From positions 36,448,001-36,512,000 of the forward strand of contig CM051511.1 in assembly GCA_028015205.1 (NCBI GenBank): DNA of 64,000 nucleotides, read 5' to 3'. Below, piece after piece: positions 13,969-56,530 of this stretch (the first letter of the stretch is position 1; each line of letters opens with the position of its first letter). The translations under genes were made by a program, and so were the position numbers. This DNA is from Mytilisepta virgata. Taxonomy: Eukaryota; Mollusca; Bivalvia; Mytilida; Mytilidae. Under the pieces are notes generated by a model. It saw only the letters and a program-made list of their open reading frames with translations, ran no database searches and had not been told where the DNA came from.

Positions 13969-16900
13969 CTGTTAAAATGAAATATCTATGAAAACTTTTT
14001 TTCTTTTCCACAGAATTTTAGAGAAATCAAAATAAAAAAATTCTTTCGGACTATTTCTGATTATAGAATAAAGAAAAATCCAAGAAGACCCTTGTTTGCA
14101 CTTCTGACCACTTTATCTCTAAAACAAAATGGTTGTTGAAAAAAAACATGCAGACTTTACTGAAATCTCTCAAGAGATATCAAATAGAATTAAAATCTCA
14201 AAACTGGAGAAAAAATATATATTTTAGATATAAGAGAAATAATTTTGTCAAATATAAAGACATATAATATCATGCATTCACAAAATCTATTTTTTACTGA
14301 CTGAATACAAGGTAGTATCTTATATTTACATAAACAAAATATCTGGTAATGTAAAAATAAAAAATCACAGTACATACCTCAACTACTGGTTGTTTGGCTT
14401 TATTACGAGACTGGCTTCTCTTTTCCAAGAACTGTTTGGCAAAGTCCTTAGAAGCCTTACTTTCACCAAGGTATGACCTCACATAGTCATGAACCTACAA
14501 TATTTCAGGATATATATGTATGATAATAGTTCGTTGTTGTCTTTATTTAAAATGCTGTTTGCGTGGCTCGTGATGCGAGCACAGCAATAGCCCTTTTCAG
14601 AAACTCATTTCCGGTATCACGATTCTGACTCTAAAATTATAATTTGAAGCAAGTTATTTCCCTTACTTACATTTCCGGCAAATGAAACTTTTTTCTAGCC
14701 TTAGTATATAGCACAATATGGCTTCCCCCATTAAACAAAGACTTTTCTAAATGACCCATATGTAGAAAATGCATATGCTCCTATAGCGCTCGCTGCGCTC
14801 ATTAATAATCAAACCTTTGTTTTATTGTGTATGACACAACTGATGGAGAAAAAAAATCCCTTTTAACAATATTTAAAATATGCTCACTGCACAACTGAGT
14901 CGTAAATCAACGAAATGTGCACATCTTGTGTAATAAAATTGTTATCATAGTATTTCAACTTTTTCACAAGTTAAAAATTATTTAATATAATGATTTCTTT
15001 ACTCAGTAAATCACATTAATATATCAGAAGAGTGAAGATATCTTTTTCTCACTGAAATTTCTACAGATAAATCTACTGTATAGGATCCCTCTACATATTA
15101 CTGTCATCAATGGAAACTTGGAAAATAGCCCTTTCATAAACAAATGCTGTAAAACTACCCTCTGCATAAAGACTGTTTAATTCTTGTCCCTTCCATTTAA
15201 AGTTTTGTTTGTCTTATTCTATAATAATAAACCTTTACGAAAGGGACACGTTATAACTAAACAAGACGCTCCCAAGAGCCTCAATTGCTCACCTGTTATC
15301 TTTTGTGTACCAGTAGATTTTGCATCAATGATTTTTTTCTATTTAATGTATACCATCGCAATTTTCTCCTTAATCCTGAACCCAAATAGATATGGTTGCT
15401 AGGGACTTTTTCATCGGTAGCTATGGACTTTTTCAATGGCATTGACTCTTGACCTTAAATTATGACTTGAACAGGTATATTGTAGGGTCCTGAACCCAAA
15501 TATATATGGTTGCTAGGGACTTTTTCATCGGTTGCTATGGAATTTTTTAATGACCTTGACCCTTGACCTCTCTTATTGACTTGTACAGGGAAATTATAAG
15601 GTCCTTAACCCAAATATATATAGTTGCTAGGGATTTTTTCATCAGTAGCTATGGACTTTTTCAATGACATTGACTCTTAACCTTAAATTTTGACGAACAG
15701 GTAAATTGTACTTTCCTGAACCCAAATATATATGGTTCCTTGGAACTTTTTCATCGGTTGCTATGGACTTTTTCAATGACCGTGACCCTTGACCTTTCTT
15801 TTTGACTTGTACAGGTAAATTATAAGGTCCTTAACCAAATATACATGTATATGGTTGCTAGGGACTTTTTCATCGGTTGCTATGGAATTTTTCAATGACC
15901 TTGACCCTCCATTTTACTTGTACAGCTACCATTTAATTTATTTCAAGTAATGCCCTAAACATATGTGACAATGTCAGACCATTATTTTCTGTTTACATGT
16001 AAATAATCTTTCAAGGGCAAAAACTGCTGTAAGGGGTCAACTGACGATGTTGGTCAGGTTGACTTATTTGTAGATCTTACTTTGCTGAACATAATTGCTG
16101 TATACAGTTTGTCTTTATCTATAATAATATTCAAGCTAATAACCTTAAACTGCAAAATTGCCTTAAAATTAACAATTTAGGGGCAATAACCCAAAAAATG
16201 GGTTGACCATTTGGTCTGAAAATTTTATGACAGGTAGATCTTGACCTCATAAACATTTTTACTACTTCTCAGTTTTGCTCTAACTGCTTTAGTTTTCGAG
16301 ATATGAGCCAAAAAGTGCATTTTCACCTATGTTCTATTTTTAGCTAGGGCAGCCATGTTTCTCGATGGACAAGAAAATAAGGATCTATAAGCCTAAGTTT
16401 GGCTGAAATTGATTCTGTAGTTTCAGAGAAGATTTTTAAAAGTTTACAAAGATGACGGAAAAAATGTGAAAAATTAACAATTCAGGGGCAATAACCCAAC
16501 AAAGGGTTGCCTGATTTGTCTGACAATTTCACGTCTGGTAGATCTAGACCTGTTGAACATTTTTACAGTTTTGCTGTAAATGCTTTTGTTTTTGAGATAT
16601 AAACCAAAAACTGCATTTTACCCCTATGTTCTATTTTTAGCCATGGTGGCCATGTTTCTCAACAGACAAGAAAATAAAACATACACTTTAATCTAGATAC
16701 CTTAAGGATCATTCAGACTAAGTATGACTGTAATTGGTTCAGTGGTTTCAGAGGTGAAGATCTTTGAAAAAGTGATGGCAAAAGCTCACATGTCCTTATA
16801 GGACAGGTGAGCTAAAAATGGCTCTTTAACCAAAACTTCAAATCCTATACTAACCTCATAAGGTGATTCCACTTCTGTCAAAAAGGCTACAAAAGTTGGT

Positions 16901-22900: not shown

Positions 22901-25900
22901 CCAAGCACATGTCGTAAAATGCAATTGTTTAATGTTGTCTCGGAAAGGTACATCAAAACTCTGTGTTTTCAAACTTCAGTGAATTTGAGCTAAATTAAAA
23001 ATATATTATTTTTCGTTGGATATTTAAATTTGTGGTTTACCGGGACCCACGAAAACCACGAAAATTAGTATACAACGAAAAATAATGAATTCACAGTAAC
23101 TAATCTTGAAATTCAAATACCTAAATTTACAAGAGGACCAAACAATACATTAATTCAAGAAAGTGTATAGTGCCTGACTGAATAATTAGTTGATTAGTGA
23201 TGAATTGTTGATTTCTGGTATATAATTGTTATGTTAATAACATTGTCAAAATTAAAATATTTTATCTGAAAAATAAGGAATTTTATTTTCATGTGACTAT
23301 GCATTGAAGATTGTACAGCTGTGATATCACTTCCTTGAGTGAGTGAAAGAACAATATCTATTTCACATGTGAATTATAGGATTTTCTTTCACTAGGAAAT
23401 TATATTATTTCACCAATCATGATTTAATAAACTTGTACAATATCTTCTGTTCCCTTAAATAAATTATTGCCTTTACCTATGATTTTATGGTTCAGGTTTT
23501 TGATAAGGGTTGTAATCAACTATTTCATTTTTATTTTTTTTTTAAAGTATTCCATCACCAAACATCAATGTTACATTACTGGACATCATTTGGACATATA
23601 TTTTCTGGAGGTAACTGAAGGGTCAAAGAATTTAAGAATACATGAATGTTTCAGTTTATAATAATGTGCCTTACACCTGCCCATGACACCTTTTAACCTT
23701 ATACTTACACCTGTCCTGACCATGATTTCTGTTGTTGTTGTTGTTGTTGTATAGCTATCATTTGTTGTCTCTGTGCTTCTAATTGTCTGTGAATCTATTC
23801 AACACAAAGAATCAATCTCAACATTTCATAAATAATAAATATAGGGCCAGCCTTAAAAATATGATTGTTTGCCCTTTACCACTCTAGCCTTAAAGGTCTG
23901 GGTAGGTAAAGCAGGTAAATTATTGAATTTTTTTTTTTTATAAAGTGGGTTTCATAAGTCATATTTTATGGCAATCGGAACAATTGGGACTATAGATTTC
24001 TAAGTAACAATGACTCACGAAATGTTCCAAAAATAATTTTACTAAATACGAAACCAATGTCAAAATAGGAATCTTTCCAGAAATGCCAAATCGTTAAAAA
24101 AAAACTTCACAGAACAGTATCATTTTTTCATCACAGAAAATTCCACAAGTCGCCTGCAAAGGGGAAACAAATAATATTTTAATTTAGGCCTAGTGTAAGT
24201 TACCTTTAAAATTCGAATACCTACATGTACATATCTACAATGAGTGACCAAATAGCACATAGATTCACAGATGCATGTAATACATGAGTAATTAGTGTTC
24301 TATTTATCATGACTTGTATATTCTTCTTTTTACACAGTCAAAATGATGATATATTAAAGAAAATATGACTATACCTCAATGTTCGTGTGAGTTATCACAC
24401 TTCCTTGAGTGAAAGAAGTGTTTATTTTATGTGTGAAATATCAATTTTTGTTTCTCTGGGAAACCATGGTATTTCAGCACTCTCAATATTAACAAGGAAC
24501 ACCTCAGCCTTTGAAAAATTCATTCCAATATTCCCATAAAAACTACGATAAACATTAATGGCCAACTTAGATTTAATTTATTTTCAATGTTTCTATATCT
24601 ACATCTACAGAAAAAATAAACATTTTGAATATTACACAAATATATACAATCGATAGGATGAGAATCTCAATTTTATCTAAGCTAAGGTTTACTTTGAAGT
24701 ATATGTTGCTTTTTTCATTGCTGAGGAGTTATATTGATATATTAACCCATGTGTTTTAATGATGCAATCCCTCATCTGATTATCTCCCTTTAGTGACTTA
24801 CCTCCTCTTGTTTCTGACGTTCCCTTTCTTCCTGTTCCTGTATCTCTAGTAATGACTTGGCTTTCTGTTGTTCTGTTGCTTGTTGTTGACTTGCCCACTG
24901 TGCATGTTGTGGTAACTATAAAACACAACTATGGCATTAACAAGCAGCAGTACATGTATATTAGATGTTCTCATGGCATTATGGCTATCAATCTGAGGTT
25001 TTTTAGATTAGTTTGTCTTTAGCTGGTATCAAAGAAAGCTAATGCTGTATCATGCTTTTCAAAAGTACAATAAACAACTGGGATGACAATTTCAGTACTG
25101 TTTCAGCTGTAGGTAATATGCAGTCTAAAATTATACGCACCCCTTTTCAAGCTCTTATATCGAGGAAAAAAATTTAGTTCTATTATATTATACGCATGGA
25201 CACTTTGGCAACAAAGTCCAAGTTGTGGTCATCATGAGATCAGTGTTTTCATAATTTTCAGAACTGAAACATCTTTTCATTTTCGTTGAGTCTTTCAATT
25301 TGTTTTATAAATGTTTTTATGCAATTAAAATAAAAGATAAATTAGGAAAATGCTTTAAGACAAATTGATTAATTATTGACAACGGAAATCAACTACGACC
25401 TTCTAATTTCCAAATTGAATTTAGAACGACTTGTTTGTTTGCGCGATATTAATTTAAAATTTAGTGAAACAATATGTAAACTAAAGGCTCAGAGGGCTGA
25501 GCCTGTATTGCCCACCTGGAATGAAAGCCATTTTTATTGATGTACCTCAGAGAAGTCATTTCTCCCTATCATTATGAAGCAAGGTAAGCCTTGTAGCAAC
25601 CAAATTTTTCTTTATGAAAGTCCTTCTACTTACAGGTCAGGATATTTCTCCAGAAAATTTTTGCATGTATTTCCCATAGGGTCTTATGTAAACCTAAGTC
25701 CTCTGCTGAAGGCCATTTTGAATTAGGGATCGGCACCAGAGTAACAACACTTGGTGAGCACCTTAAGGGGAACATTCAGACCATGTTTGATTTCAAGCAA
25801 TTCTGCGGTTTTGTAGATTTTTGTTATATGTCTTAGACACTTTCTGACAAGTTTGGCTCTATTTGGCCAAGCGGTTTAAGAGAATTTTTTTTTTTTTAAA

Positions 25901-28900
25901 TCAACCAATCAGAAACAAGAATTGCCCATGGCGGCCATGTTTGTCGCCTGATCTGGACAAAACGAGGAAACTTTGCAAAAAACCTCCAACAGATGCTTCC
26001 TGTCAAGTCTTATTCCCTTAGGCCAAGCAGTTTCAAAGAAGAAAATTATCAACCGATTAAAGACAAGAGCTGCCCATGACGGCCATGTTTGTTGCCTGAT
26101 CAGGACGAAATGAGGAAACTTTGTATAGAACCTCCCAATTATATGCTTTCTGTCAAGTTTCATTCAATTTGGCCAAGCGACTTCAGAGAAGATTTTTTTA
26201 TATCAGCAAATCAGAAACAAGAGCTGCTCATGGTGGCCATATTTGTATTCCGATCGGGACAAAATGAGGAAACTTTATAAAGGACCTCCCATATATGCTT
26301 CCAGTCAGGTTTCGTTCCATTTGGGCAACTATTTCAGAGGAGAAGATTCTTTTATATAAGCCAATCAGAAACAAGAACTGCAAATGGTGACCATATATGT
26401 ATTCCGATCAGAATGAAATAAAGAAATTTTGTAAATAACTTTCCATAGATGCTTCCTGTAAAGTTTCATTCCATTTGACCAAGCAGTTCCAGAGAAAAAA
26501 CAAATTTTTAATCAACCTATGAGAAACAAGAATTGCATATGGTGGCCATGTTTTTTGTCCGATCGGAATGAAATGAGGACACTTTGTAAATAACATCCTA
26601 TAAATGCTTTCTGTCAAGTTCTGTTCCATTTTGCCAAGCGATTTCAGGGGAGATTTTTTTTATATCAACCAATCAAAAACAAGAACTGCCCATGGCGGCC
26701 ATATTTGTAGTTCGATTGGGATGAAATGAGGAAACTTTATAAAGGACCTCCCATGTATGCTTCCAGTCAAGTTTTGTTCCATTTGGCCCAGCAGTTCAAT
26801 CAGAAACAACAAATGCCCATGGCGGCCATGTCTGTTGTCCGATCAGGACGAAATGAGCAATCTTTATCAGGGCTCACCACACTTGAAAATAACAGGGAGA
26901 CTCAGAGTCTCCCTCAGGGTAGCAACAGGGAAACTTCAGGGCATGACAGGGAGACTTCCAAGTCTACCAGGGAGACTGTGTTTTTTCCCCCAATTTGTAG
27001 CCTGTCAAGTAAATACCTGTTATTTTGTGTCTTATAGTGTATACTATACATTCCTTTATTGTGTTTTATCCTGTATTGTTTGAGATTTGATCTACATTTA
27101 CTCCATATCCTTCTGTTTTAGTCATAATCTGAGATTTTGTCAGAGATTGTGAGTTTGTCTTATCTACAAATGTACATTTGATTTGTATACTTGGAGATGT
27201 TTAATACTTTTTTACTATTTTTGCAGGTTTCCTCTACAGTTATGATGATATCTTGTAATAAACTGATTAATTTATATTTGAAACTAGAGGTACTGTTGTC
27301 ACAGGAGTCCAGCATGCTGGACTGTTTTAGCACGCTAAAACTGATGTCTCCCCTTCCATACCCATAGTTTTTTTAACATTTTTTAGGGATCATCAAGGTG
27401 GCAAATTAAGAGCTATGGTACATAATACATGTAGTTACCTACAGATATGTGCTTCAACAAGGAATGAATAAGGTAATATATAGTTTTGGGGAAGGGATCT
27501 GAACCATTTTTAAGATAAATTAAGGTTTCTGGTCTTGAGGGGTAGGGGATGACCCCCGGGGCTCAGATGTATACTGCATTCAACTTGTCTTGTTATCATG
27601 AATAATAAAATATATGGTTTAAGGGTGGGGATTTCAACCCTTTCCAAGATAATGTAGGCTAGGGGGTGGGGACTGACCCCCAGGGACCCAAATGTGGTAA
27701 TCTGCACTCCGCCTTGACCTGATGCATATACCTTCCAAATACCATGAGGCTAGCTCAAGAAACAAAAAAGTTATGTTCCGGACAAAAAATTTGATTAGAA
27801 GAGGAAGAAGAACACTATTGGGTTGGGATCTCAATGGTTTTCAGAATATTTAGTATTTTATCATTTGAGGGGGTGGGGCATGACCCCCCTCAGACCCCCC
27901 TATGGTACCAAATGATTTGTCTTATCATAAGGAGTAATAATATATATGGTTATAGGGTGGGGATCACAATGGTTTTCAAAATATTAAGTATTTTATCATT
28001 TAAGGGGGTGGGGCATGACCCCCCCCTCAGACCCCCTATGGTACCAAATGATTCGTCTTATCATAAGGAGTAATAATATATATGGTTATAGGGTGGGGAT
28101 CTCAATGGTTTTCAGAATAATAAGTATTTTGTCATTTGAGGGGGTGGGGCATGACCCCCCCTCAGACCCCCTATGGTACCAAATGATTCGTCTTATCATA
28201 AAGAGTAATAATATATATGGTTATTGGTTGGGGATCTCAATGGTTTTCAGAATATTTAGTATTTTATCATTTGAAGGGGTGGGGCATGACCCCCTCAGAC
28301 CCCCCTATGGTACCAAATGATTCGTCTTATCATAAGGAGTAATAATATATATGGTTATAGGGTGGGGATCTCAATGGTTTTCAGAATAATAAGTATTTTG
28401 TCATTTGAGGGGGTGGGGCATGACCCCCCCTCAGACCCCCCTATGGTACCAAATGATTCGTCTTATCATAAGGAGTAATAATATATATGGTTATAGGGTG
28501 GGGATCTCAATGGTTTTCAGAATATTTAGTATTTTATCGTTTGAGGGGGTGGGGCATGACCCCCCTCAGACCCCCCTATGGTACCAAATGATTTGTCTTA
28601 TCATAAGGAGTAATAATATATATGGTTATAGGGTGGGGATCACAATGGTTTTCAAAATATTAAGTATTTTGTTATTTTAGCCTACATTTTACAGGCTAGG
28701 GGGTGGGGACTGACCCCCAGGGACCCAAATGTGGTACTCTGCACTCCGCCATGACCTGATGCATATACCTTCCAAATATCATGAGGCTAGCTCAAGAAAC
28801 AAAAAAGTTATGTTCCGGACAAAAAATTTGATTAGAAGAGGAAGAATAATAACTAGGTATGATTGTGATCGCCAGCGAGTCACAAGATGTCTCCCAAACA

Positions 28901-31900: not shown

Positions 31901-34900
31901 AGGATGCATTACGACCTGGCATCTATGTAACAAGAACTACCTTAACCAAGTAAACTAAGGGAAATAATCCTTGTTTCCTACCTGGCGTCTTTGTGCTTCC
32001 TGTTGTTTCTGACGTTCTTCTAATTCACGTTGTTTTTGTTCTAGAAATTGTTTCTGTCTCAGCTCCTCGTCCCTCCTAAAATTTATTGATAAAAGATGTC
32101 TGAAATGGTGTTCACATTACAAGAAAATGTCACACAACATAATTTAAGCGAAAGAAAACTGTTTCAGGCCTATCACGATACAGTTTTGCCTTCAAACTTT
32201 TCTCATCTGGAGGATACTGACAGAAACCAAATATTTCACAAAATTTAAAACGCCTTTAAATGGCAAATCCACGGAATCAATATTAATTTGTAACCGAAAT
32301 TTTGAATTTGATCTCAGTATAATAGCTTCTAATCTTTATAATGTATTTTAAGTCTGAATAAGTTACCCTTTTCACAGTTTTAAACATTGAACCAATCATT
32401 TGGATGTGGCAATGTATGAAATATTTAAGGTCTGATTAGACCCTTTCTATGTCCATTTCAAAACAATAAACGATCCTACGCAATAAATTTTGAATTATCT
32501 GTGTGTTTTCTATTTTTAATACAAAACCTGGCAAACAGGATTAAATTACAAACCTCATTTCCTCCTCTCTCTTTCTCCTCATGAGTTCCTCTTGTTTCTG
32601 TCTCATTTCTTGTTCCTTCCTCATTTCTTCTTCCTTTCTTCGTCTCTCTTCTTCCTCTGCTTCTCTTCTCTTTCTATGTTCTTCCTCCTGATTCCTTCGT
32701 CTTACTTCTTCTAATCTCTATATTTAACAGATGATGGATGAATTATTGTTTAACGTCCAGTGGCAACCATTAGGTACATATCAGGACGAGGACAATTTGA
32801 TATGATATGAATATGATCCCTGCTTTGTACAAGACCCACACGCTGAACCGGATTTGGATATGCTAGCTCATGAGGTAACTGTCCGCAGGAAGACATATCA
32901 CCCCACTCAGACACATTTATACTTACTCCAAGCTGACCTGTCCTCTGCTCTTACTACTAGATACCGTGTGCTTGGCGTAGAAGCAGCAAATACAAATTGA
33001 ATGTCTTTTGTCAAACCCACAACCTTCTGCACTTGATACATATACTTAAATATCACTGCTAAAATTCATATATCTACTAGATGTTTTGTGAACTGTTGTT
33101 ACTAATGTGTAAACCAGCTCCTTCTGGCTGACAGAAAACAAATGTTATGGCATGTATTGTGGACTTTTGTTAAGTTTTAAATTTAAGGCTGACATTTGGA
33201 TCTTTATTTTACATTTTTTCATTCATGTGAATATGATATAGATGTAGGTGCTTAACTTCAAGCTTGATATGAAATTACACAAGCTTTGTTCTGTAGTCGA
33301 GAAAAGTGTAACAAAAATTTTGTATGCTTACATAAGTAGTATTGTATTGTAGATTTTTGGTATTTAAATTACCAAAAAAAGGCCCGCCTACAATCCAACA
33401 TATATTAGAATTTTCTAACAGATATGACAAATGTTTTTACAAACCTGTAATTCAAGTTGCCTTTGTTTTTCTATTTCTATTTTCTCCCTCTCCATGTCTT
33501 CCCTTCGTCTTTGTAATTCTTCTTGTTCTTTTAACATTTCTTCATGTTTTCTTTTCAATTCTTCCTGTAATCTTTTTTCCTCTTGTTCTTTTTCCAGACG
33601 TATTCTTTCCAACTGTTCTTCTTTTTCCTGCAAATTACCACATTAGAATTTCAATGTATTCATGCATTTTCTGTGTATCTACAGTTTAGTGCCATGGTGA
33701 TGCATCAACAAATTCTACTACTTCACAATAATTCACTGTATACCAATTTTGGTGTGTTTCATGGGTGAAGTATTCCACAAAATGCATTCCACGTACAGCA
33801 AACATCATTCTTTGGAGTCGCACAACCACCTACCCACGCATAGTCTATCACTAATCTAATAACCAGTTGTTCAAAAGTTTACAATTTCCAGTTTTAAATT
33901 TTCACTTCTTTAGTTATGCCTAAGGACTGAAAATTTTCTGATGGGTTAATCCTAGGACTTTGTGTGTCTATGCCAAATTTTGTACAGAAATATTACTTAA
34001 CAATTGAAATAATGGAAAGTGAAAAAAGTAACTTTTGAACAACTGGGCCAAGAGATTTTTTCTGTTGGAAAATCTAGTTAAAAATGATAGAACCACAAAT
34101 ATCTGTATCCTGGTATCAACATTTTTCTCAACCAAGAAAAAAATCTAAATATTTGACTTACATCAAATGAATACAGTGATTGGATTGCTTGATACATAGC
34201 TTAAAGTTGATGGCCCATGAAATTATATGATGGCCCATCATACTATTATTACTAGCTTTGTTATAGAAGGCACTACAAGTATTAGTTGTAGGACGTATTT
34301 ACATGCTACACTGGGCTGTTATTCAGAACAGTTTCGAGTCGGCCAATGGCCGACGAGAATTCTGTTCTGAACGGCAGGCCGTTGTAGTATGTAAATCGTC
34401 CTACAACGGGCTTGTATATTGATTGGTCGATTAGATCAGGGGCATCAACCTTTTCTCCCCTTTCCACGAAATGGGTGTTAACGAAATCGGCCTGCATGCT
34501 TTCTGATTTCGCAGGAATCTTCATAGTGGTGGTAGTTTTCGTCATGGCTGGTCAGAATTTGGTTGAGGTGGAATTTTTGTTTGCCACATATTAACATGGA
34601 GATATAACGCTTTCACAAACCTGCGAAGTTATTGAAAATGAACACTTGGCTATGGAAAGAATGGGCGATTTGTTGATGCAAGAGAATAATGATCAGGAGA
34701 ACGTTACACTTTCACTGTGCTATGGTGCTTTAGGGGGTACCAGATTCCTAGATTTGGAGGAAACTTCGCTCTCCAAATTAATGCGAGATTATGATACTGT
34801 TGATTTCGGAACTTTCACGATGGAAACTGGCGACGCAAGTAAAATATTAAGAAGAAATTATCGGAAATAAACGATGAAACGTTCAGATTTGCAGATCCTG

Positions 34901-37900
34901 TGACCGACCAGTATATTAAAGAATTCATAGAGAGATCAGGAGAACAAAAATACAAAGAAAAATACAGCCTTTTCTGTTGGTGTGTTTGAGAAGCGGAAAC
35001 TTTATCGCAGAACTGGAGTGAAGTCACATAACCCGGTTGTGGAGTTAAAATTTATGACTAGATTGCTATTTTCAAAAAATTTATTTGATTTGTAATTATC
35101 AGTAAATGATACGAAATACAGAATATGTCATTGTTAATTCATCTTGTTGCTTAGGGAGAGGTTTCTCTTTGTCGTTTTATGTTTTCTTTTTTTTGAAAGG
35201 GTCATTTTGTTCGGCAATGCAGGTTTTGTTCCTTATTTATATTTTTTTTTCATTTTTAGCAATGCCATGAAAATAAACGTCCAATGCAAGGAATCTATAA
35301 ACACTGGGTAAAATTTAGGTTTCTAGGTCACTGTAACTGTGCTGGTTATCAGGATTTAATGGAAGTTGTAGTACGTTCCCTCTGAACTACAACATCCTTA
35401 TATTAGAAGTTTTAGTACACTTAAGCTCCGCTTCCTGTAAGGGTATCAGGATTTAAAGAACAACCGACTTCAAAGGAATTCGCATCTCATCATGATACAA
35501 TGGCCCATAAATATTTTTTGTCATAGGGCCCAAAGGCCCATTAAAATTTGTCTTTCCTAATGAGTGTGTAGAAGTATCCTGGTAGTTTAATGTATGAAAT
35601 ATTCAGATATTTGTAACTATTTGTTATATTATTAGAATTACAATTGATAAAGAATATTTTACAGCTTTTACTGGTGTGTAAACATTGCTTTTCACAAAAC
35701 ACAAGAGTTGACACACAAAAATGTCTCGCCTATCGTGCATTTCTAATGAAAGTAAATATTATCAGACATATTGCATACAGTATTCGAAAAACAGGCCAAA
35801 ACACAAAAACTTAACTATAACCACTGAACCATGAAAATGAGGTCAAGGTCAGATGACACCTGCCAGTTGGACATGTACACCTTACAATCCTTCCATACAC
35901 CAAATATAGTAGACCTATTGCTTATAGTATCTGAGATATGGACTTGACCACCAAAACTTAACCTTGTTCACTGATCCTTGAAATTGGGTCGAGGTCAATT
36001 GAAAACTGTCTGACAGGGATGAGGACCTTGTAAGGTACGCACATACCAAATATAGTTATCCTATTACTCATAATAAGAGAGAAATTAACATTACAAAAAA
36101 TCTTAACTTTTTTTTCAAGTAGTCACTGAACCATGAAAATGAGGTCAAGGACAATGTACATATGACAGACGGAAACTTCGTAACATAAGGCATCTATATA
36201 CAAAGTATAAAGCATCTAGGTCTTCCACCTTCTAAAATATAAAGCTTTTAAGAAGTTAGTTAATGCCGCCGCCGCCGGATCACCATCCCTATATCGAGCT
36301 TCTGCGACTAAAGTCGCAGGCTCGACAAAAACAAAGTCAGCATTTAGTATGTTTTAATATCAGTAAACTTCTTTAGGTCTATTCCATTAAAATGAATGTG
36401 GGAGTGTAGGAAGGGACTTTCAAAATACCCTTACAAATTACAAACTTTTTTTAGATAACTTTACACACATCTGATAGGCACACACTAAAAATGACACAAG
36501 ACAATAAAACTTCCAATCCTACCCTCCCACATCCATTTTAATGGCATAACCCTCAAGAAGAAATGGGCAAATTATCAGCAAATCTGATTTTCCTTTGTGG
36601 CTGTCTGGTGCCTCTTGCCTTTACTTGTCTACACTTACTTTCCTGGCCTTCTCAAGCTGCATTTCTAAATCTGTATTAGATATAGCATTTTTTGGATCTA
36701 AATCCCATACACTTGTCGGTTGTGACCATACTCCTACAATACATTTAACATTACAATAAGTATAAAACAAATCTGGAAAGACCCATTATGGTTTAAATAT
36801 TATCTGGTTCTTTAATAAATGTATACATACAGTAATATGCAAAATAGGTCTCATTATGTGAAAATATATATAGCAAAATCTTTGTACTTATAGCACATAT
36901 ATGGCAGTGATTTTCACACAGGTGATTAATATTTTTTGTGGTCTTTCAGTTTTCCTAGGAATCCTATCAGTATTTTGAGCTGCCTATCAGTAACATTTCA
37001 AATTTGATTAGGTACTTTCAATATTCATTCGATCGTCTGGAAATAAATGATGAAGATGAGGAATTCTGAAACAGAAGTCTTCCAAACACATTTGGAGTAT
37101 GATCAAAACATTCAAACATACAAACATTCTAGTGACACAAAGGGTCAAAAATTAATTTCAGCATGATAACAGAAAGCTAAATTTAGGCACCCAAGTCCAT
37201 ATTAAGCATTTAAAATCTGTGTGTAAACACCTTGGTTCTTATGCCCTTTCATAGCCTTTACCAAAGAACAAAATATTTTGAGCAATCTCCTGATGTATGT
37301 TTGGTTTTTTCTGAAATAGTCAATTATAATGAAATACTAAACAGTTTAACTCATTAACTTTTTCCAGCTACAGATACTATTATCAGTGATTATCACCAAT
37401 ACCAAATCTCAGAGAGGCCACAATACCAAATCTCAGAGGGGCCACAATACCAAATCTCAGATAGGCCACAATACCAAATCTCAGATAGGCCACAATACTA
37501 AATCTCAGAAAGGACACAATACCAAATCTCAGATAAGCCACAATACTAAATCTAAGATAGGTCACAATACTAAATCTCAGAGGCCACATTACCAAATCTC
37601 AGATAGGTCACAATACTAAATCTCAGAGAGGCCACAATATCAAATCTCAGATAGGCCACAATACCTACCCATATTTTTTGTGTTTGTGTCCCATATAGAT
37701 GCCCCCTCTTCTGTTGATGTATTTGGTTGTGAGACAGATCTATGGAAAGCTGGGTGACTAGGATTCGATGGCAATACTGGTTCTGTTGGTGGAGATCTAC
37801 TGCAAAAAAATAGAAAATATTTGGCATAATTTTTTCTGTATGTGACTGTTCTACAGTTTTATGAAGATGTTATACACTTGTTAATAGATATTCACGTTCA

Positions 37901-40900
37901 CATGTAGAGCAATACACAAATGTACTGTAGGACCCTCCTTTGAAGGCCCCAAAGGAAGGAAGGTTTCCTTGTAACATTCTCTAAACCTTTGGCAAGATTT
38001 CTTTGCTGCTGTTGGTCCCAAAACATTATTATTGTCATTAGTTGGTCTGGTCTGATCTGTCTTCTTGGACATGCTCCCCGCCATATTGATTTATTTAACC
38101 TCTTCTCAAAGGCGCTTTAAAGCATAAATATTCTGCTGCTTTCAAGCATTTAAGTGATCCACAGGGAATTTTACACATTTTGTAACAAAACGAAAATTTT
38201 CCAAACAAGCAAATTGACAACCATAGATTTTGAAATGAAAATCATAGCCGTAATTTTTCACTAAAATCCGTAGAAACTACGGCAAAATCGTAGATGTAAA
38301 CACCTCTGAGGGTATAGTTACAGTACAAAACAAATTTATGATTGAGTTACATATATAAAACAAACATGTATGACAAATGTATGGTATATAGTGACTATTG
38401 CATTACTAGACTATTACCTGGGTGATGATTTCTGTATTTGTGATTGTTATATGAATGCAGATTATTAACTGGGGGATAGTTTCTGTATTTGTGACTATTA
38501 TATGACTGTAGATTATTACCTGGGTGATGTTTTCTGTATTTGTGACTATTATACACTGTATGACTGTAGATTATTACCTGGGTGATGTTTTCTGTATTTG
38601 TGACTATTATATGACTGTAGATTATTACCTGGGTGATGTTTTCTGTATTTGTGGCTATTATATGACTGTAGATTATTACCTGAGTGATAGTTTCTGTACT
38701 TGTGACTTTTGTATGACTGTAAATTATTACCTGGGTGATATTTTCTGTATTTGTGATTGTTATATGACTGTAGATTATTAACTGGGGGATAGTTTCTGTA
38801 TTTTTTTACTGTTGTATGACTGTAGATTATTACCTGGGTGATAGTTTCTGTATTTGTGATTGTTGCATGACTGGTACCGGTGACTGTTTTACTATATATT
38901 GCATGGCTAATTGTTGTTGCTGTAAAGGTGGTAGATTTTTAAACTGTTCATTTTCCTGCAACTGCTGCATCACTTGTTGTATCTGTTGCATTTGTAATTG
39001 TCTACAATAAAATCATTAAACTTTAAACATAAAATAATTTTCTGGACCAATTTTCCCAATGTAAATATGTTTGGGTGTTACATATATTTTTCTACATTTC
39101 TAAATATTTTGGTTGCTCTAAAATGAGTCCTATAAAAGATTTGGAATGCTTCAAGTTTTTCAAAGAGACCAATAATATGAAGGCCATAGATATATAAAGT
39201 TTCTCAGTATTAAAGAAATATGATACAGTATCAAGGGGAGGTAATGCCATACACATTGTGACATTATAGTATCTCTCCAAGAATACTTTTTTAACATCCT
39301 AAAAGGTTTTCCTTAAATATCTCCGTAATAAGCACATGAACCCCCACTTTTTAGTTCGCCTGAACAAAGTTGAGGGGGACAAATGGAGTACCCCTGGCGT
39401 CCACGTCCACAGCAAGTTCGCAGTTACTAGTTGACATAGGCTAATATCTTTTTTGTGTTCTGGTGCATTTTGAAGAGACTGACCATGTGACATAAGATGA
39501 AGGTCACATGACCCATATTATACGGTTGACTGGCTTTTAAGTTTTGTCAAAAATCAAGTGACCTACAATCATATTACTTGGTGTGAGTGTGCATCTCGGA
39601 GAGTAACACAGCCTTTCATCAAAATTAGGTCACACTGACCTACTTATTGCACTTCATCGACTTAGGTTAAGTTTTACATCCAAGTTGTTCTCTGATACCA
39701 AGGGACCTACAATCATATTACTTGGTGTGACAATGCATCTCGGAGGGTAACACAGCCTTTCACCAAAATTAGGTCACTCTGACCTACTTATTGCATTTCA
39801 TTAACTTAGGATAAGATTTACGTCCAAGTTCAGTTCTCTGATACCAAGGGACCTACAATCATATTACTTGGTATCAGGGTGCATCTCCGGGAGTAACACA
39901 GCTTCCCACCAACACTGTCCCTCTGACCTAGTTATCCCGCTTCAATAATTTAGGTTAAGTTTATGTCTGAGTTCAGTTCCCCGAAACCAACGGACCTACA
40001 ATCATATTACTTGGTGTGAGGGTTTCATCTTGGGGAGTAACAAAGCCTTTCACCAAAATTAGGTCACTCTGACCTACTTATTGCCCTTCATTGACTTAGG
40101 TTAAGTTTTACGTCACAGTTCATACTAAGGGACCTACAATCATATTACTTGATGTCAGGAGTAACACAGCTTCCAATCAAAAATTAGGTCAGTCTGACCC
40201 ACTTTATCGCTGCAATAATTAGGTCAGAGTGACATAATTTTGGTGGGAAGCTGTGTTATTCCCGGAGATGCACCCTGACACCAAGTAATATGATTGTAGG
40301 TCCCTTGGTAGGTATTGGAGAACGGAACTCTAATATGATTGCAGGTCCCTTAGTATGTTAAAACTGATTTTTGACATAAAATTTAAAAGCCAATCAACCG
40401 TGTAATATGGGTCACGTGACCTTCATATTTATTCCACATGGTCAGTGTCTTCAACGAGCACATGCACACAAAAAATATGACCCTGTGTCAACTAGTAACT
40501 GAGAACTTGCTGTGGATGTGCATATGCGAGGGGTACTCATTAGTCCCTCTCAAAACCAGATATTCCTTTGTTACCATTTGAAACCATCCAAAAGCCATAC
40601 ATTGTAGAAACTAATAGATTATTTCCATTGGAATATCCAAATAACAACTCACAAACTTACAGTAAAACTTACCTCATTAAGAATTGTTGTTGCATGAGCT
40701 GTTGCTGGACAAGTAATTGCTGTAAGGCCTTCATCTGTTCCTGTTGTGCAGCTTCTGTGTTAGCTTGACTGACCGGTGTATTCTATCAAATTTACAATAC
40801 AAATGTCTTTGTAAATGGAAAAGAATTGATTTTTCTGTATATATTAAAAAGAAAATCCTGACACTATTCCTAGACAATTTTAAAAAACAACAAATTATGC

Positions 40901-43900
40901 ATACCAGAAACAGCAAAATTTAACAAAATGGCAAAATTCATATCCATGAAAATGAATGAAACCATAGATAAAACTATCTTATTAAAACAAAATACAGCCA
41001 AAAATCTTATAAAAGTCACTCTGTATTGCATCTTATTTTACAGCTATACAGATATGAAGCATTTTATAATAATTTTCTGAAACGGTCCACTCTCGATAGG
41101 AAAATGTAACAATTGTGGGATACATAATAAGGGCTTTTCCCTTAAAATGGATGTGGAAGGGTAGGAAGGGAACTTTTATTATAGGATATGTGTCTTTTGT
41201 CACTTTTAGTGTGTGCCAATCTTATGTATGTAAAGTTATCTAAAAAAACGTTTGTTGGTTGTGGGGATATTTTGAAAGTCCCTTCCTATCCTCCATCACT
41301 TTAATGGAATAGCCATAATCGCAGTTTTCATGATATTGAAAAGACTACTTTTAAATAGTATAATCTTTCGCAGTAACAGTTTCATCTAGGTGGCAGCACA
41401 AAAGGAGCTATTAATGTTGGAAAAAAATGTTACCTAAGGCTCCTTACGAGATCGGTCTAAATAAAGCCTTCAGTCTATTTAATGTTTTGGCAATTTCATT
41501 TGGTTCCTTCTCTGTGCAAACTTTTACACTACATGGCTTAATTCTTTATAGAGAAAAAAAGATACAACATAACACAACTGAACATATGAACTTTCTGTTA
41601 TACTTACCAATGCTGGTGGTGGCGAAGGTCCAGGCAAAAATGGAACTCTGCCCCAACTTTTAATAAGTTCTCCTGCAATGAAAATTTATCAAAAATTATA
41701 TGTTAGTCATAACCCAAATTTTCCTATTTGCTTCAACTGTTCATAATTTCCTGAGGACTGATATTTACATTAATGGTTAACTTAATCCTACCTCTGGTTA
41801 ATGACAATTTTCCAACAGGTATGTTTTTCCACAAAATTTTGATTTCACAAAGCAAATATTTTCATGTCAAAATTTTAATGATGTTTAATGATAATTATCC
41901 CTGAACGACCTCAGATCATGCAGGGGTAATTTAACATGGGCAGCATGGCGGGTGTCCTGCAGGAAGCAGAGACTGCTTACTCTTCCGGAGCACCTGAGTC
42001 TACCCCCAGTTTTTTGGTGAGGTCCATGTTGTTCATGTATTTTTAGTTTTTAATTGTAATGTATGTATTGTTTTGGGTCTTGTCTTCATTGTTCTCTGGA
42101 GTTTGTCAGTTGTTTTGATTTTTCCCTCCTTCATATATCCCTTTGGTATTTCTTTGACTTTTACTTATTCATAAAATGCCTAAAATGAACTTGCACTTAT
42201 AAAACATGTCTGTTTACAGTTACCCATCTGACCCTAATTTGAGCGCCAAACCTAAGCTGTTTTATTTCAGTTGTTAAGTGAAGATTAAGTACTAAAACAG
42301 CAACACTTCGTTAAATTCTATCACAAAACTGAAAGAAAAAGTTAACAATCATGCTTGTCCCTCTAAGTCATTCTGGCATTTGACTACAGGACCTAAGCTT
42401 TGCAAGCGAAATTACTGATTCTGTTAAAAACAACATGGAAATGGCAATGGATTTGTATGTATATCTGTCTTGGCTGGATTTTGGTAATCCTGGTCTTGTA
42501 CTCTCTCCCTGGATTTTCAATTTCTGAAGCTGTCTTTTCTTGTTGCTTTGGTAATCTTCCTGATATGACCTTTTGCAATATCAATGTCTCATCTCTTCAA
42601 ATATTTTAAACTTTGATGATCACTGACTATTTTTTTGCAGATTGTGATCTTTCATTTTAAACTTTACAAATTGCAAATATCTGAGATGACCTTAAACAGA
42701 CATATGATTTTTTGGGGTCTTATATAAAGCTTTAACTGTTCCACTGCATCTTTACCAAAAGAGATGAAACAGGTATGATTTAATTTTTTTTTAATAAACA
42801 TTCCACTCTAATGAAAAAAATTTTAAATGTGGAAAACTTATCTGTAATTTCAGAAGCCTGTGTATAAAGAGCAGAAAATGCACAAGAAACAAGAGGCTCC
42901 CAAGAGCATGAATCGCTCACCTGTTATCTTTTGTGTACTGGTAGATCTTGCATCAATGATTATTTTTGCTAATTAATGTATACCGTTGCAATTTTCTCCT
43001 TTATATTGACCTGTACAGCTAAAATATAGAATCCTGAACCCAAAAGATATGGTTGCTAGGGACTTTTTCATCGGTTGCTAAGGACTTTTTCAATGGCATT
43101 GACTCTTGACCTTCCATTTTGACTTTATATGAAGGTTAAGATTTATTCATTACAGGGTCATTTTTGCAGTGCCTTTTTATAAGGGTATCCTTTAAAACAG
43201 GTCTGACTGAACTATTAAAGGCATATGCTCCGTTCTTCTTAAAATGGACCTTACCTAATGGAGATATTTTTTCATCACACCCTCTTTTGACCTGTAAATT
43301 CATGGTAAAATATCCAGCACTAAACCATTCTGCCATTTCATTTGATGTAAACGGACCTACAAAAGATACAATTATCACTGTATTGGCCATTGACACTAAC
43401 TAGTACGGTTTGATATGCACAACCTAACAGATGCCCCCCCCCCCCCCCACCCCCCAATTTAGACGGTGGCCATCTTTCATTTTTCAAAATGGGCATCTGT
43501 AACATTGTTGATGGTGTTGAAAATTTCTATGCTAATATTGGAGCTATCCAGAATTGTTTTCTATTCTTTCAGAATTTTTTTAAACTTTGAAGGCGGCTAT
43601 TTTGAAAATTTTAAAATCACCCTGCACATCTACTAAATGGTGCCCTCTTTTTGTGCCAAGTTTAGTATTGATCGGTAGCCATCTCCGAGAACACTCGCGA
43701 ACAAAAAGTGGCTAGAGAAGAAAAATAAAAAGAAACAAAGTAAAAACAATACTTTTCTCCATCAATTAGTGGGGGGAACATAATAAGGTGGAAAACTGTT
43801 GTGTTTAAACACTGTCAACATGTAGATATCTAGTTTATTTGAAACTTTTCAGTTTTTCTGGAAAATGTTGTAAGCAAAAATTAAATATACAGTGAAAATT

Positions 43901-46900: not shown

Positions 46901-49900
46901 GTATCTTCTTTCTGTTTGTCTGGTGTTTTATTTTTATTATTGTTTTTCTTCTCTACAGCTTCAGCAGAATTATTTTTAGTGTCACTATTATCATTTCCTT
47001 TTTCACCAGGCTTTATCTAAAAATAAAGTTTTTGTCTAATTATAGACTATACATATATAATGATGAATATTCAAACAAAAATCAACTTTAGTGTGAGCCT
47101 GATGCCTCAACAATGCACTGTGTCTGATTTTAAACTATCTGAGGCCAACATAATACCCTATACACTGAATGTATACTTGTTTGTAAACATTTTTGAATTT
47201 CTTTCATTCCAAGGCTGCCGAGTTGTTTAGGTAAATAGTAATGACCACTAGCCTGTAACACCAAGGTTGTGAGTTTAAATCAGACCTGTGGCAAAGTGTG
47301 TCGACTCCAGTCAGAATTGGCTAGAATTTCCTGAATTAGTTCTCAAGACTCCACCAATAAAAAATTGACAGAACAATATAGCAAATTGTGCATAAAACCT
47401 CAATAAACATGACAGTCTTTCCAATATCATAATAACCTAATGAGTTTTCCATCAATTACAGTTTTCACCAAGAGTGGATTTTCCATTGTTGAATCAATTT
47501 TTGTGTCTGTAATATGATCTGTTCCTTATTTTAGCCATAGCCTACATAACTCACCTTATTTGATACAAAAGCACCACTTGAATCAAACGACCCCACATCA
47601 TTCCCTTCTGTGTCTGCCATACTCCATTCTGGTAAATTTTCTGATGGCAGAAAGTGAATAAATGATCACAAAATAATTTAAGATTTAAACTGTTTTTTTG
47701 ATTGACTAACAAGTTATTTTTCAATAAATCAAAATTATCTGTTGTCATGACATCAGGCACTGCTCAGGGCATCATTTATATTTTATAACTTCCTTGTTTG
47801 CCCTATTTTATCCCAAATCTTTTCTACCTATAATCAGCTGAAACTGAATTAACCAAACATATACAATCAAATGATTAATTCTATTTGAATTTGCTGTAAA
47901 GATTTTAAATCTTTTCTTGTATTAGAAGGATTCTCCATCTAACATAATAATTTTTTTTCACACCTTTAAAAATATCCCAAATCATAAAACTGGGTATGGT
48001 ACAAATACCTTCTTCATCCCATGATTCGCTTATTCTGTTTCTCTGATATGATCTCCCTTTGTCCCTGTCAAACCCTCCACGCTGAATACCATTTGGCTGA
48101 TGTCTTTCTGAATCAAATCCACCACGATCCACTCTATTTAAGGGTTCTCTCCAGTTACCTCTATCTGTAATAGACATTATATGTAGTGTTCAATATGCAG
48201 AAAATCCTAGTAAGATACTTACTGAATTAATTAAAACATGCATTTAATTTTCAACAAGTACTTTGCCAAACTACAAACAGGATTTTTTCCATTGGAAAAT
48301 CCAATTAAGGTAAGGTAGGTAGGTAGAGAGAACACTATATTTTGTCCAAACATTCTATTTTAAGGAGACTGCAGGGATAATGACCAGCCATGCTTTTTCA
48401 TCCTGGTCACTAAAACTCTTTTAATATTACACAAGAAATGTTAACATCAAGTATTTTGATGATAATTTTATATTTTTTTGTCGATAAAATATTTTTGTGT
48501 CACAGTCAAAAATCAGGTCAAAAATGAAACCATAAACACTCAATTTTTTGTTTCAGGTTTCATTTGAATGAAGGAAGTTGTTTATTGAGGCAAACTAAAA
48601 TTGAGCGTAAAAAATTTCTCCATTTTCAGAAACATGCATTTAGAAACTACCAACATTTTCCAAAAAGTATAATAGGAAACATAGTATAGTGGCCAAATTT
48701 TTGGAAAAAAATTACCATCCAACCAGCCCTATTTTTTGGCATCATTACCATCTTAAAACCATCAATTTTGCTGATTTCCCCTTTTTAAATGTACATAACT
48801 CCTTGATTCATTATTACATCTGAGGATTAGAAGATTCATGAGATGATTTCTTCCTGTAATTTTTTTCATAGACATCATCTGAATTGAATTTCACCATGAT
48901 AGAGAAAACTTCTCTAGAAAAAGACAACATAACCTAATATTTAATTTTCCAAATACATGCATTTCATTGTTTCATATTTTTCATGCCGCCTTTTGTGGTA
49001 AAATAACGTGTTTTAACAGCAGCCAGCTTCAAAAAGACATCCATGAGTGTTGACCTTAAAATTATCATTCTTAATCAAAGTGTATAGCACTGCTAGGGTT
49101 AGGTTGCTAGCATTTGACTTTTATTTGTACAAACATTGCTGATGATTATTTCAATAAATATGCACTAATCAATCAAAGAAAGCACGAGTCGGCTAACGCT
49201 TCTTGAATTATCACTCTAAATTGAATTTTTTAAAAAAGACAAACGCATAATAATGATTTGATCAATTAAAATAAACAGAAATCAAAGGTCTTCAAGTTAT
49301 TAAGGTTATATAAAAAGACAAAGTTTGGACAATTGTAGAAGGGGGTCATTTCTACAATATATTTACACTACATTGCGCATGTGCAGGTAGATCAGAACGT
49401 AAACATTCAAGCTTTCAATTAAAATAAACCCATTATACTTTCGATAATACCGTTTTCTAAATTAATGATAAACACATTGTTTTTCAATCTTAATGTGCAA
49501 GTTGTCGGCATTTCAAATAACCTGTATGCAATTCTATCACTGACCAACAGGTTTGACAAAATGAAGTCATGATGATCAGGTCAAAAGGTTAATCAAATAC
49601 ACAAAATACCATCAGAATTACAAGAAGAATAAGCAAATAATGTGCAAAATATGTTCTGTATAAGTTAACAATCACGTTCACAACAAAAATGGAACTTACC
49701 TTTGAAATCTTTTGAAAATAAACCTGATTGTAATCCTTCCCAAGATATCCGTGCAAATGTAAACATTCAAAATCCTTACGCCGATAGCATTGTACATTTT
49801 AAAAGGCGCGAATACTTTATACGGCTTTCAAAACAAAAAGGAAATCGTCAATAAAACACATCTTTTATTAAATAACTGGACAATTACACTTCTCGGTGTG

Positions 49901-55630: not shown

Positions 55631-56530
55631 CTAGAGGCTCAGAGGGTTAGCCTGTATCGCTCACCTGGCAGAAACAAGAATTGCCCATGGCAGCCATGTT
55701 TGTCGCATGACCTGGACAAAATGAGAAACTTTGTAAAAAACCATCCACAGATGCTTCTTGTCAAGTATTGTTTCATTTGGCCAAGCAGTTTCAGAGAGGA
55801 AGAATTCTTGATATCAGCCTATCAGAAACAAGAATTGCCCATGGCAGCCATGCTTGTCGTCCAATCAGGATGAAAAAAATTGATTTCATAAAAGACTTTC
55901 CATAGATGCTTCCTGTCAAGTTTGGCTGACAGTTTTGGCCAAGTAGTTCCAGAATTTTCTTTTTTTTTATAAATCAACCAATGAGAATCAAGAATTGCCC
56001 ATAACGGTCATGTTTGTTGCCAGATTGGGACAAAATGAGCAATCTTTGTAAAGAACCTCCCATAGATGATTCATGTCAAGTTTCGTTCCATTTGGCCAAG
56101 CGACTTCAGAGCAGAAGATTGTTTTATATCAGCCAATCAAAAAAAAAGAACTGCCCATGGCGTCCATATAAGTAGTCCAATTGGGACGAAATGAGGAAAT
56201 TTTATAAAGGACCTCCCATATATGCTTCTTGTCAAGTTCCGTTTCATTTGGTCCAGTGATTTCAGAGAGGATTTTTTTATATCAGAAACAAGAACTGCCC
56301 ATTTTGACCATATTTGTAGTCCGATCGGAACAAAATGAGGAGATTTTGTTCAGAACCTCCCATAGATGCTTCCTGTCAGGTTTCATTCTATCAGGCTTAG
56401 CAGTTCCAGAAAAAAAAATTTTCAATCAACCAATGAAACAAGAATTGCCCATGGCAGCCATGTTTGTTGCCCAATCGAGACGAAATGAGGAAACTTTGTA
56501 AATAACCTCCAATATATGGTTCCTGTCAAG
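55631..56530 (+). mobile_element. CTCACCTG-type element with 150-bp units, truncated right end
   Basis: Left end 'ctagaggctcagagggttag' then GCTCACCTGGCAG. Six or so units with 'gcccatggcagccatgtttg', 'tgcttcctgtcaag' and 'ttggccaagcagtt'. Sibling of 25479-30238, without the later insertion. Confidence 0.7.

What the first reader, a model, noticed from the sequence alone, without database searches (positions are those of the whole stretch)
38405..39001. A minisatellite that multiplies a 5' splice site of GIGYF
Nine 51-bp units on the minus strand each contain the end of exon 13 fused to the start of its intron. Seven keep a good donor (CACCCAG|GTAATA) and two have lost the GT (AGTTAA). The units are in direct line with the real exon end, so the spliceosome meets one correct donor followed by six competing ones at 51-nt steps. 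In the exon frame every donor is followed at once by TAA TAA, so use of a later donor would insert a stop and yield a protein cut just after the Gln-rich region (about residue 634), lacking the charged helix and C-terminal domain. This could be harmless, a decoy array, or a tunable switch whose strength depends on repeat number.
Basis: partly seen in the sequence, partly recalled or inferred. Interest (0 to 1): 0.75.

Follow-up and report, generated by a model that had tools for sequence, protein, structure and literature searches.

The report
Mussel minisatellite copying a splice site
In a mussel-like GIGYF gene the last 37 bases of an exon and the first 14 bases of the intron have been copied in tandem, so the true splice site is followed by six look-alikes; similar repeats are known in two human genes, and nothing here shows that the extra sites are used.

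Summary
A 51-bp minisatellite (minus strand, 38407-38873, nine units) starts inside exon 13 of a bivalve, probably mytilid, GIGYF gene. Its unit is 37 nt of exon end plus 14 nt of intron start. The true donor (38834) is followed by eight copies: six keep CAG|GTAATA, two lost the GT. CAGGTAA occurs nowhere else in about 37.5 kb of this gene's introns. The protein across exons 13/14 matches bivalve GIGYFs, so the first donor is ancestral.

A later donor, or one 37-nt cassette, brings a premature stop, which predicts nonsense-mediated decay rather than a stable 634-residue protein.

The donor motif is not specially conserved among units, which fits passive growth. The kind is known: human IFI6 (6-16) and the CBS 31-bp VNTR. 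No RNA, population data or sister-species DNA could be reached, so use of the decoys is untested. The locus is a natural test of splice-site choice by position alone.

The parts
38834..39001 (-). GIGYF exon 13 (168 nt, ends in phase 2, ...CCC AG)
   Evidence: protein matched by relatives
38407..38873 (-). 51-bp minisatellite, nine units; the first unit is the end of exon 13 itself
38825..38836 (-). true 5' splice site, CAG|GTAATA, last exon base 38834
   Evidence: U1 duplex -8.4 kcal/mol; protein continuity across exons 13/14
38725..38733 (-). decoy donor CAG|GTAATA, last exon-like base 38731
   Evidence: U1 -8.4
38674..38682 (-). decoy donor CAG|GTAATA, last exon-like base 38680
   Evidence: U1 -8.2
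38623..38631 (-). decoy donor CAG|GTAATA, last exon-like base 38629
   Evidence: U1 -8.4
38572..38580 (-). decoy donor CAG|GTAATA, last exon-like base 38578
   Evidence: U1 -8.4
38514..38522 (-). decoy donor CAG|GTAATA, last exon-like base 38520
   Evidence: U1 -8.4
38412..38420 (-). decoy donor CAG|GTAATA, last exon-like base 38418
   Evidence: U1 -8.4
38776..38784 (-). lost donor (CAG|TTAATA)
   Evidence: U1 -1.7
38463..38471 (-). lost donor (CAG|TTAATA), same variant as at 38782
38520..38767 (-). five consecutive exon-like cassettes bounded by an acceptor-like TACAG and a decoy donor: 38767-38731, 38716-38680, 38665-38629, 38614-38578 (37 nt each) and 38563-38520 (44 nt)
38384..38417 (-). 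worn, partial tenth copy
37669..37799 (-). GIGYF exon 14; begins TAGATC after GCAG, so a cassette of 37 nt would put TAG in frame

Best explanation
A local minisatellite born from the exon-intron border. A 51-nt stretch spanning the end of exon 13 was duplicated and the array then grew into the intron by slippage, unequal exchange or block copying (inferred; units 2-3 and 8-9 share variants). It now offers the spliceosome one true donor and six copies of equal intrinsic strength and nearly equal flanks (shown). Splicing mostly uses the exon-adjacent donor; what escapes to a decoy or cassette gains a premature stop and is removed by nonsense-mediated decay (inferred, not shown). Net effect: mainly passive, with some splicing leakage.
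For: The protein across the exon 13/14 junction is that of other bivalve GIGYFs (LSP followed by (S)R in 17 of the 23 relatives aligned, among them all 12 rows named as bivalves), so the first donor is the old one. Decoys equal it in U1 pairing and matrix score. The donor core is no special block of conservation: 14 of 51 nine-column windows are at least as conserved. The two lost donors share one variant, as expected of copied neutral changes. Related transcript-like proteins P0001-P0003 carry the full-length form, which speaks for the exon end, not for this array.
Against: Local context gives the true donor no advantage: 18-20 of 21 bases around each GT copy match it, and folding does not hide the copies (five GT decoys 0.55-0.60 unpaired, the true donor 0.59, the last decoy 0.31). 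Published work describes factors that favour the intron-proximal site (PMC5585400, passages), so 'first donor wins' is not given. CBS and IFI6 precedents show that such arrays can have effects. No transcript of this species was found.
Confidence: 0.6

Rival explanations
1. A leaky poison-donor array: a sizeable share of transcripts uses decoys, all lead to a premature stop, and GIGYF output falls as repeat number rises, as reported for the CBS 31-bp VNTR.
For: Equal donor strength and flanks; every later donor retains the in-frame TAA; more CBS repeats were reported to go with lower enzyme activity (PMC5188458, passage); two downstream IFI6 repeat units are said to act as donors (PMC4526556, passage).
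Against: No RNA; GIGYF is a conserved gene, so heavy loss should be selected against (inference).
Confidence: 0.23
2. A regulated switch: splicing factors shift choice between the first and later donors, lowering GIGYF in certain tissues, possibly with feedback through GIGYF's own role in repressing mRNAs with premature stops.
For: An upstream donor giving the full protein and a downstream donor giving an NMD target is a known regulated design (Hps1 and Ptbp1, PMC4222953, passages); GIGYF2-EIF4E2 represses a subset of NMD targets (PMC8555832, abstract).
Against: No special conservation of donors among units; no RNA data; conservation of the array in other species untested.
Confidence: 0.07
3. 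A cassette array: intronic units act as 37- or 44-nt micro-exons through their own acceptor-like and donor sites, most of them frame-shifting.
For: Acceptor-like TACAG at seven of eight intronic unit starts, scoring 5.8-7.6 (21 real acceptors: -3.6 to 10.2); five cassettes in the array against four purely intronic ones elsewhere in the gene.
Against: 114 intronic AGs elsewhere score as high (3.07 per kb); neighbouring cassettes lie only 14 nt apart; micro-exons usually need help to be recognised (recalled).
Confidence: 0.04
4. A helper array: extra U1 sites strengthen recognition of exon 13 or guard the intron against premature cleavage and polyadenylation.
For: Six added U1 sites of -8.2 to -8.4 kcal/mol directly after the exon; U1 is known to suppress intronic polyadenylation (abstracts in the listing).
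Against: No sign that this exon or intron needs help; no special conservation of donors.
Confidence: 0.04
5. An assembly artefact in copy number or in the array itself.
For: Tandem arrays are prone to it (general knowledge); no reads were available.
Against: The units differ from one another, with 52- and 58-nt lengths among them, so false stacking of one unit is unlikely; copy number may still be off.
Confidence: 0.02

Closest known systems
CBS 31-bp VNTR, c.1444_1467+7(16_21), human cystathionine beta-synthase, exon 13/intron 13 boundary
   Same: A minisatellite whose unit is exon end plus intron start (24 + 7 nt by its name), so the donor is repeated. Seen in passages of PMC2630376, PMC5188458 and PMC1395315; the original report (Lievers 2001) was not read.
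   Different: 31-bp unit, 16-21 copies, known to vary between people and reported to lower activity; here 51 bp, nine units, variation and effect unknown.
IFI6 (6-16) minisatellite, 'provides multiple splice donor sites' (Turri, Cuin and Porter 1995)
   Same: A minisatellite that supplies several donors. Title seen only as a reference; PMC4526556 says two downstream repeat units serve as donors (passage). The paper itself is not held.
   Different: Human, unrelated gene; use of later donors is reported there. Here use is untested and later donors bring a stop.
CBS 844ins68
   Same: A tandem duplication across an intron-exon junction that doubles a splice site; one of the two is strongly preferred (PMC2630376, passage).
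Hps1 alternative donors under Ptbp1 (AS-NMD)
   Same: Upstream donor gives full-length protein, downstream donor an NMD target (PMC4222953, passages).
   Different: Two unlike donors with a known regulator; no repeat.
Internal tandem repeats at exon-intron boundaries of human duplicated genes; ABCA7 intronic VNTR
   Same: Tandem repeats that alter splicing (PMC2812944, passages; PMC5954066, abstract).
   Different: In the first, repeats can form new introns; in the second, length tracks exon skipping. Here the exon and intron are old and the donor itself is copied.

Membership tests
Minisatellite/VNTR that multiplies a 5' splice site (IFI6/CBS kind) | Tandem unit that contains exon end plus intron start | tested here: met
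   37 + 14 nt, nine units
Minisatellite/VNTR that multiplies a 5' splice site (IFI6/CBS kind) | Several units keep a consensus donor | tested here: met
   six of eight intronic copies, equal in U1 pairing and matrix score to the true donor
Minisatellite/VNTR that multiplies a 5' splice site (IFI6/CBS kind) | Later donors used in RNA | not testable with these tools
   no RNA data; no own-species transcript protein found
Minisatellite/VNTR that multiplies a 5' splice site (IFI6/CBS kind) | Copy number varies between individuals | not testable with these tools
   one assembly only
GIGYF | GYF domain of GIGYF type | tested here: met
   chains 7ruq_A (GIGYF1) 5e-35 and 7rup_A (GIGYF2) 2.2e-33; PF02213 in the listed relatives
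GIGYF | Collinear relatives over most of the protein | tested here: met
   81-85% to the four best mussel-like proteins over the region searched; exon matches from residue 695 to 1232 of P0001
Regulated AS-NMD (poison donor/exon) | Alternative site brings a premature stop upstream of an exon junction | tested here: met
   (in silico)
Regulated AS-NMD (poison donor/exon) | Conserved and regulated use | not testable with these tools
   no sister-species genomic DNA and no RNA reachable
Recursive splice sites (AG|GT) | A good acceptor directly abutting the donor | tested here: not met
   AG|GT (or AG|TT) points score -4.3 to -0.1 as acceptors; 20 of 21 real acceptors score 2.2 or more
Intron gain by tandem AGGT duplication | The intron is new, made from duplicated exon | tested here: not met
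   the intron's first codons are stops in the exon frame and relatives' proteins run straight across the exon 13/14 junction; intron positions in relatives were not seen. The potato case PMC4974935 was seen in a listing only

The most novel reading that the evidence does not exclude
The array is a copy-number-set rheostat for GIGYF: each unit adds an equal poison donor (and a poison micro-exon), and because GIGYF itself helps repress mRNAs with premature stops, the gene feeds back on its own decoy isoforms. Repeat number would set the strength of the loop and vary between mussels.
Probability: 0.05. Interest if true: 0.8.

Novelty: new member of a known kind. Interest (0 to 1): 0.42.

Why it matters
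Whatever its function, the locus is a natural experiment: seven donors of equal strength in one intron, the six copies matching the true site at 18-20 of 21 flanking bases. Junction counts would show directly how far position alone (first made, nearest the exon, or nearest the acceptor) decides 5' splice-site choice, a question otherwise studied with built minigenes. If repeat number varies in wild mussels and tracks GIGYF level, this would be an invertebrate counterpart of the CBS VNTR in a translational-repression gene. If only the first donor is ever used, it shows that a strong rule overrides equal competitors.

Tried and rejected
Recursive splicing (AG|GT ratchets): rejected on acceptor scores. 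Intron gain by AGGT duplication, and an exon end supplied by the repeat: rejected because relatives' proteins match on both sides of the junction. RNA structure hiding the decoys: not supported (only the last decoy, 0.31 unpaired, is less open than the true donor by much). Structured RNA family: no Rfam match at gathering threshold in the window. Selection for or against the donors among units: no signal; that script used eight intronic units with the 1-nt insertion of unit 2 and the 7-nt insertion of unit 7 taken out. A seed repeat for the first duplication: I considered CAGTCAT, which stands in the exon and again 51 nt on, but in a tandem array each unit start repeats by construction, so this is no evidence. 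Arrays tending to start at donors: 2 of 7 intronic arrays of 200 bp or more do, simulated chance 0.059 and post hoc, so not claimed. Related DNA in viral contigs: none with two patterns. Own-species transcript fragments: none; the four hits are weak or short. Earthworm metallothionein intron repeats (PMC12783039, passages): not a repeated donor in what I saw. hTERT VNTR paper (PMC2915984, one passage): cites Turri only. PMC8724738 (passages) gave nothing on which donor wins. Literature: all 10 searches used; none of the papers listed is a mollusc case by title and abstract start, but the lists were cut (15 of 39) and the library is open-licence only.

Full report
What the sequence shows. The array was read on the minus strand, found independently by Tandem Repeats Finder as 38407-38873, period 51, nine copies, and split at its donor points. 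The last exon-like bases are 38834, 38782, 38731, 38680, 38629, 38578, 38520, 38469 and 38418. Seven are followed by GT and two (38782, 38469) by TT. Spacings are 52, 51, 51, 51, 51, 58, 51 and 51. A worn tenth copy follows at 38417-38384. With up to three mismatches the 31-nt core occurs nine times in the window, all here, and never in 100 shuffles.

The gene. Exons 1-17 join without a stop into 824 codons. The further eleven exons are placed by alignment only, some with approximate limits. The GYF domain matches solved GIGYF1 and GIGYF2 chains at E 5e-35 and 2.2e-33. The protein search found 1,329 relatives and listed the best 120; the best are 85% identical over the region searched, and Mytilus edulis GIGYF is 81%. 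The window is therefore probably from a mytilid mussel outside Mytilus (inference). Exon 13 is 39001-38834.

Which donor is the real one. I aligned the window with 23 relatives taken from the top of the list (one more had no anchor and was dropped). In 17 of 23, among them all 12 rows named as bivalves, LSP is followed directly by R or SR, which is just what joining exon 13 at 38834 to exon 14 at 37799 gives. Of the other six, three have RLSP without the R, one has KISP-R, and two (both gastropods by name) have neither. So the first donor is the ancestral one and the repeat was built from it. The intron position in relatives was not seen. P0001-P0003 sit on contigs of 4.1-4.4 kb that hold whole or long reading frames and look like transcripts (inference from length).

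How unusual the donors are. CAG|GTAATA pairs with U1 at -8.4 kcal/mol (38680: -8.2), inside the range -4.2 to -11.1 of the 20 gene donors compared (exon 13's own among them; two further donors were left out there). On a matrix from 21 other donors of the gene it scores 6.7; their own leave-one-out scores run from 0.4 to 11.9, six of them lower. Outside the array the introns hold 31 GT sites of -8.2 or better in 37,546 nt, ten of them at or near modelled exon ends, so 21 others, 0.56 per kb; the 429-nt array interval holds six besides the true donor. CAGGTAA is absent from the other introns, and the rest of intron 13 has no GT site of -7 or better. By the matrix, the densest other 429-nt stretch has three such donors. 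The flanks are nearly equal too: 18-20 of 21 bases around each GT copy match the true site.

The first 14 intron bases end in TACAG at seven of eight intronic unit starts. These score 5.8-7.6 as acceptors on a matrix from 21 acceptors of this gene, whose leave-one-out scores run from -3.6 to 10.2. The array holds seven such sites (16.3 per kb) against 114 elsewhere (3.07 per kb). Five units in a row are thus bounded by an acceptor-like and a donor site, enclosing 37 nt (four) or 44 nt (one). The same rule finds ten more in the gene, of which six touch modelled exons and four are purely intronic. Neighbouring cassettes lie 14 nt apart, too near for an intron (recalled), but 38834 to 38767 would leave 66 nt. 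One 37-nt cassette shifts the frame so that exon 14 starts with TAG; the 44-nt one shifts it without a stop in the stretch shown. This is structure, not evidence of use.

Consequences of decoy use. Every later donor retains AGG TAA TAA, so translation ends at R634. For the six GT decoys the stop lies 102-415 nt before the new exon junction, and the model has 15 junctions after it. By the usual rule (recalled) this marks the RNA for nonsense-mediated decay. A stable truncated GIGYF is less likely than loss of message.

Origin and selection. The unit straddles the border, so the first event was a duplication across it; later growth went into the intron (inference). Units 2-3 and 8-9 share variants, both lost donors among them, so the two losses probably trace to one mutation copied as a block. 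The donor core is not specially conserved among intronic units: 14 of 51 circular nine-column windows are at least as conserved. This fits passive growth. It does not exclude function, because eight young units give little power.

A second array. The next intron also begins with a minisatellite, 24 bp x 11.3, 4 nt after the exon 14 donor. Its first donor-like site, 37665, has -7.1, the next best -6.1 and the others -5.2 or weaker; the real donor has -11.9. Two of seven intronic arrays of 200 bp or more start at a donor; the simulated chance is 0.059, tested after the fact, so it is a lead only.

What is known. Minisatellites that multiply a donor are described. The CBS 31-bp VNTR is named c.1444_1467+7(16_21), that is, 24 exon plus 7 intron bases (PMC2630376, passages), and more repeats were reported to go with lower activity (PMC5188458, passage). 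The IFI6 minisatellite 'provides multiple splice donor sites' by its title, seen as a reference only (paper not held), and PMC4526556 states that two downstream repeat units act as donors (passage). Tandem repeats at exon-intron boundaries alter splicing in human duplicated genes (PMC2812944, passages), and an intronic VNTR tracks ABCA7 splicing (PMC5954066, abstract). The present array is therefore a new member of a known kind. I saw no mollusc or GIGYF case among the papers listed by my ten searches, whose lists are cut and whose library is open-licence only.

How it most likely works. I favour a passive minisatellite with the first donor dominant and leakage removed by decay (0.6). Against it stands the lack of any local advantage of the true site: papers on competing donors describe factors that favour either the near or the far site (PMC5585400, passages; PMC4222953, passages). 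A leaky array that lowers GIGYF output is the main rival (0.23). The boldest reading, a feedback rheostat, rests on the report that GIGYF2-EIF4E2 represses a subset of NMD targets (PMC8555832, abstract) and has no direct support here (0.05).

Limits. The search of the window's own genome did not complete (11 tries). No sister-species DNA was reachable, and no RNA or population data are on hand. Repeat number rests on one assembly. The species is inferred from protein matches.

Noticed in passing
37397-37665: A 24-bp x 11.3 minisatellite starts 4 nt after the donor of the next exon (exon 14); its donor-like copies are weaker than the real donor. Two successive introns thus begin with a minisatellite.
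   Followed up: partly
37796-37803: Tandem acceptor GCAG|TAG at exon 14. P0003 (NLSPSRSPP) and P0004 of Mytilus edulis (NLSPRSPP), otherwise nearly alike here, differ by exactly the serine this would add or drop.
   Followed up: partly
48160-48166: Exon 6 keeps the frame only if its acceptor is the second AG of ACAGATAG.
   Followed up: partly
25891-26792 and 55669-56530: Two separate arrays of about 155 bp share a similar consensus (CAGAAACAAGAACTGCCCATGGCG...), so one repeat family lies at two places in the window.
   Followed up: no
15374-15908 and 43051-43092: The motif GGTTGCTA(G/A)GGACTTTTTCATC occurs in two distant arrays.
   Followed up: no
34595-34867: A 91-codon plus-strand open frame inside a GIGYF intron has only a Pfam match below its cut-off (16.3 bits against 25), probably chance.
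   Followed up: partly
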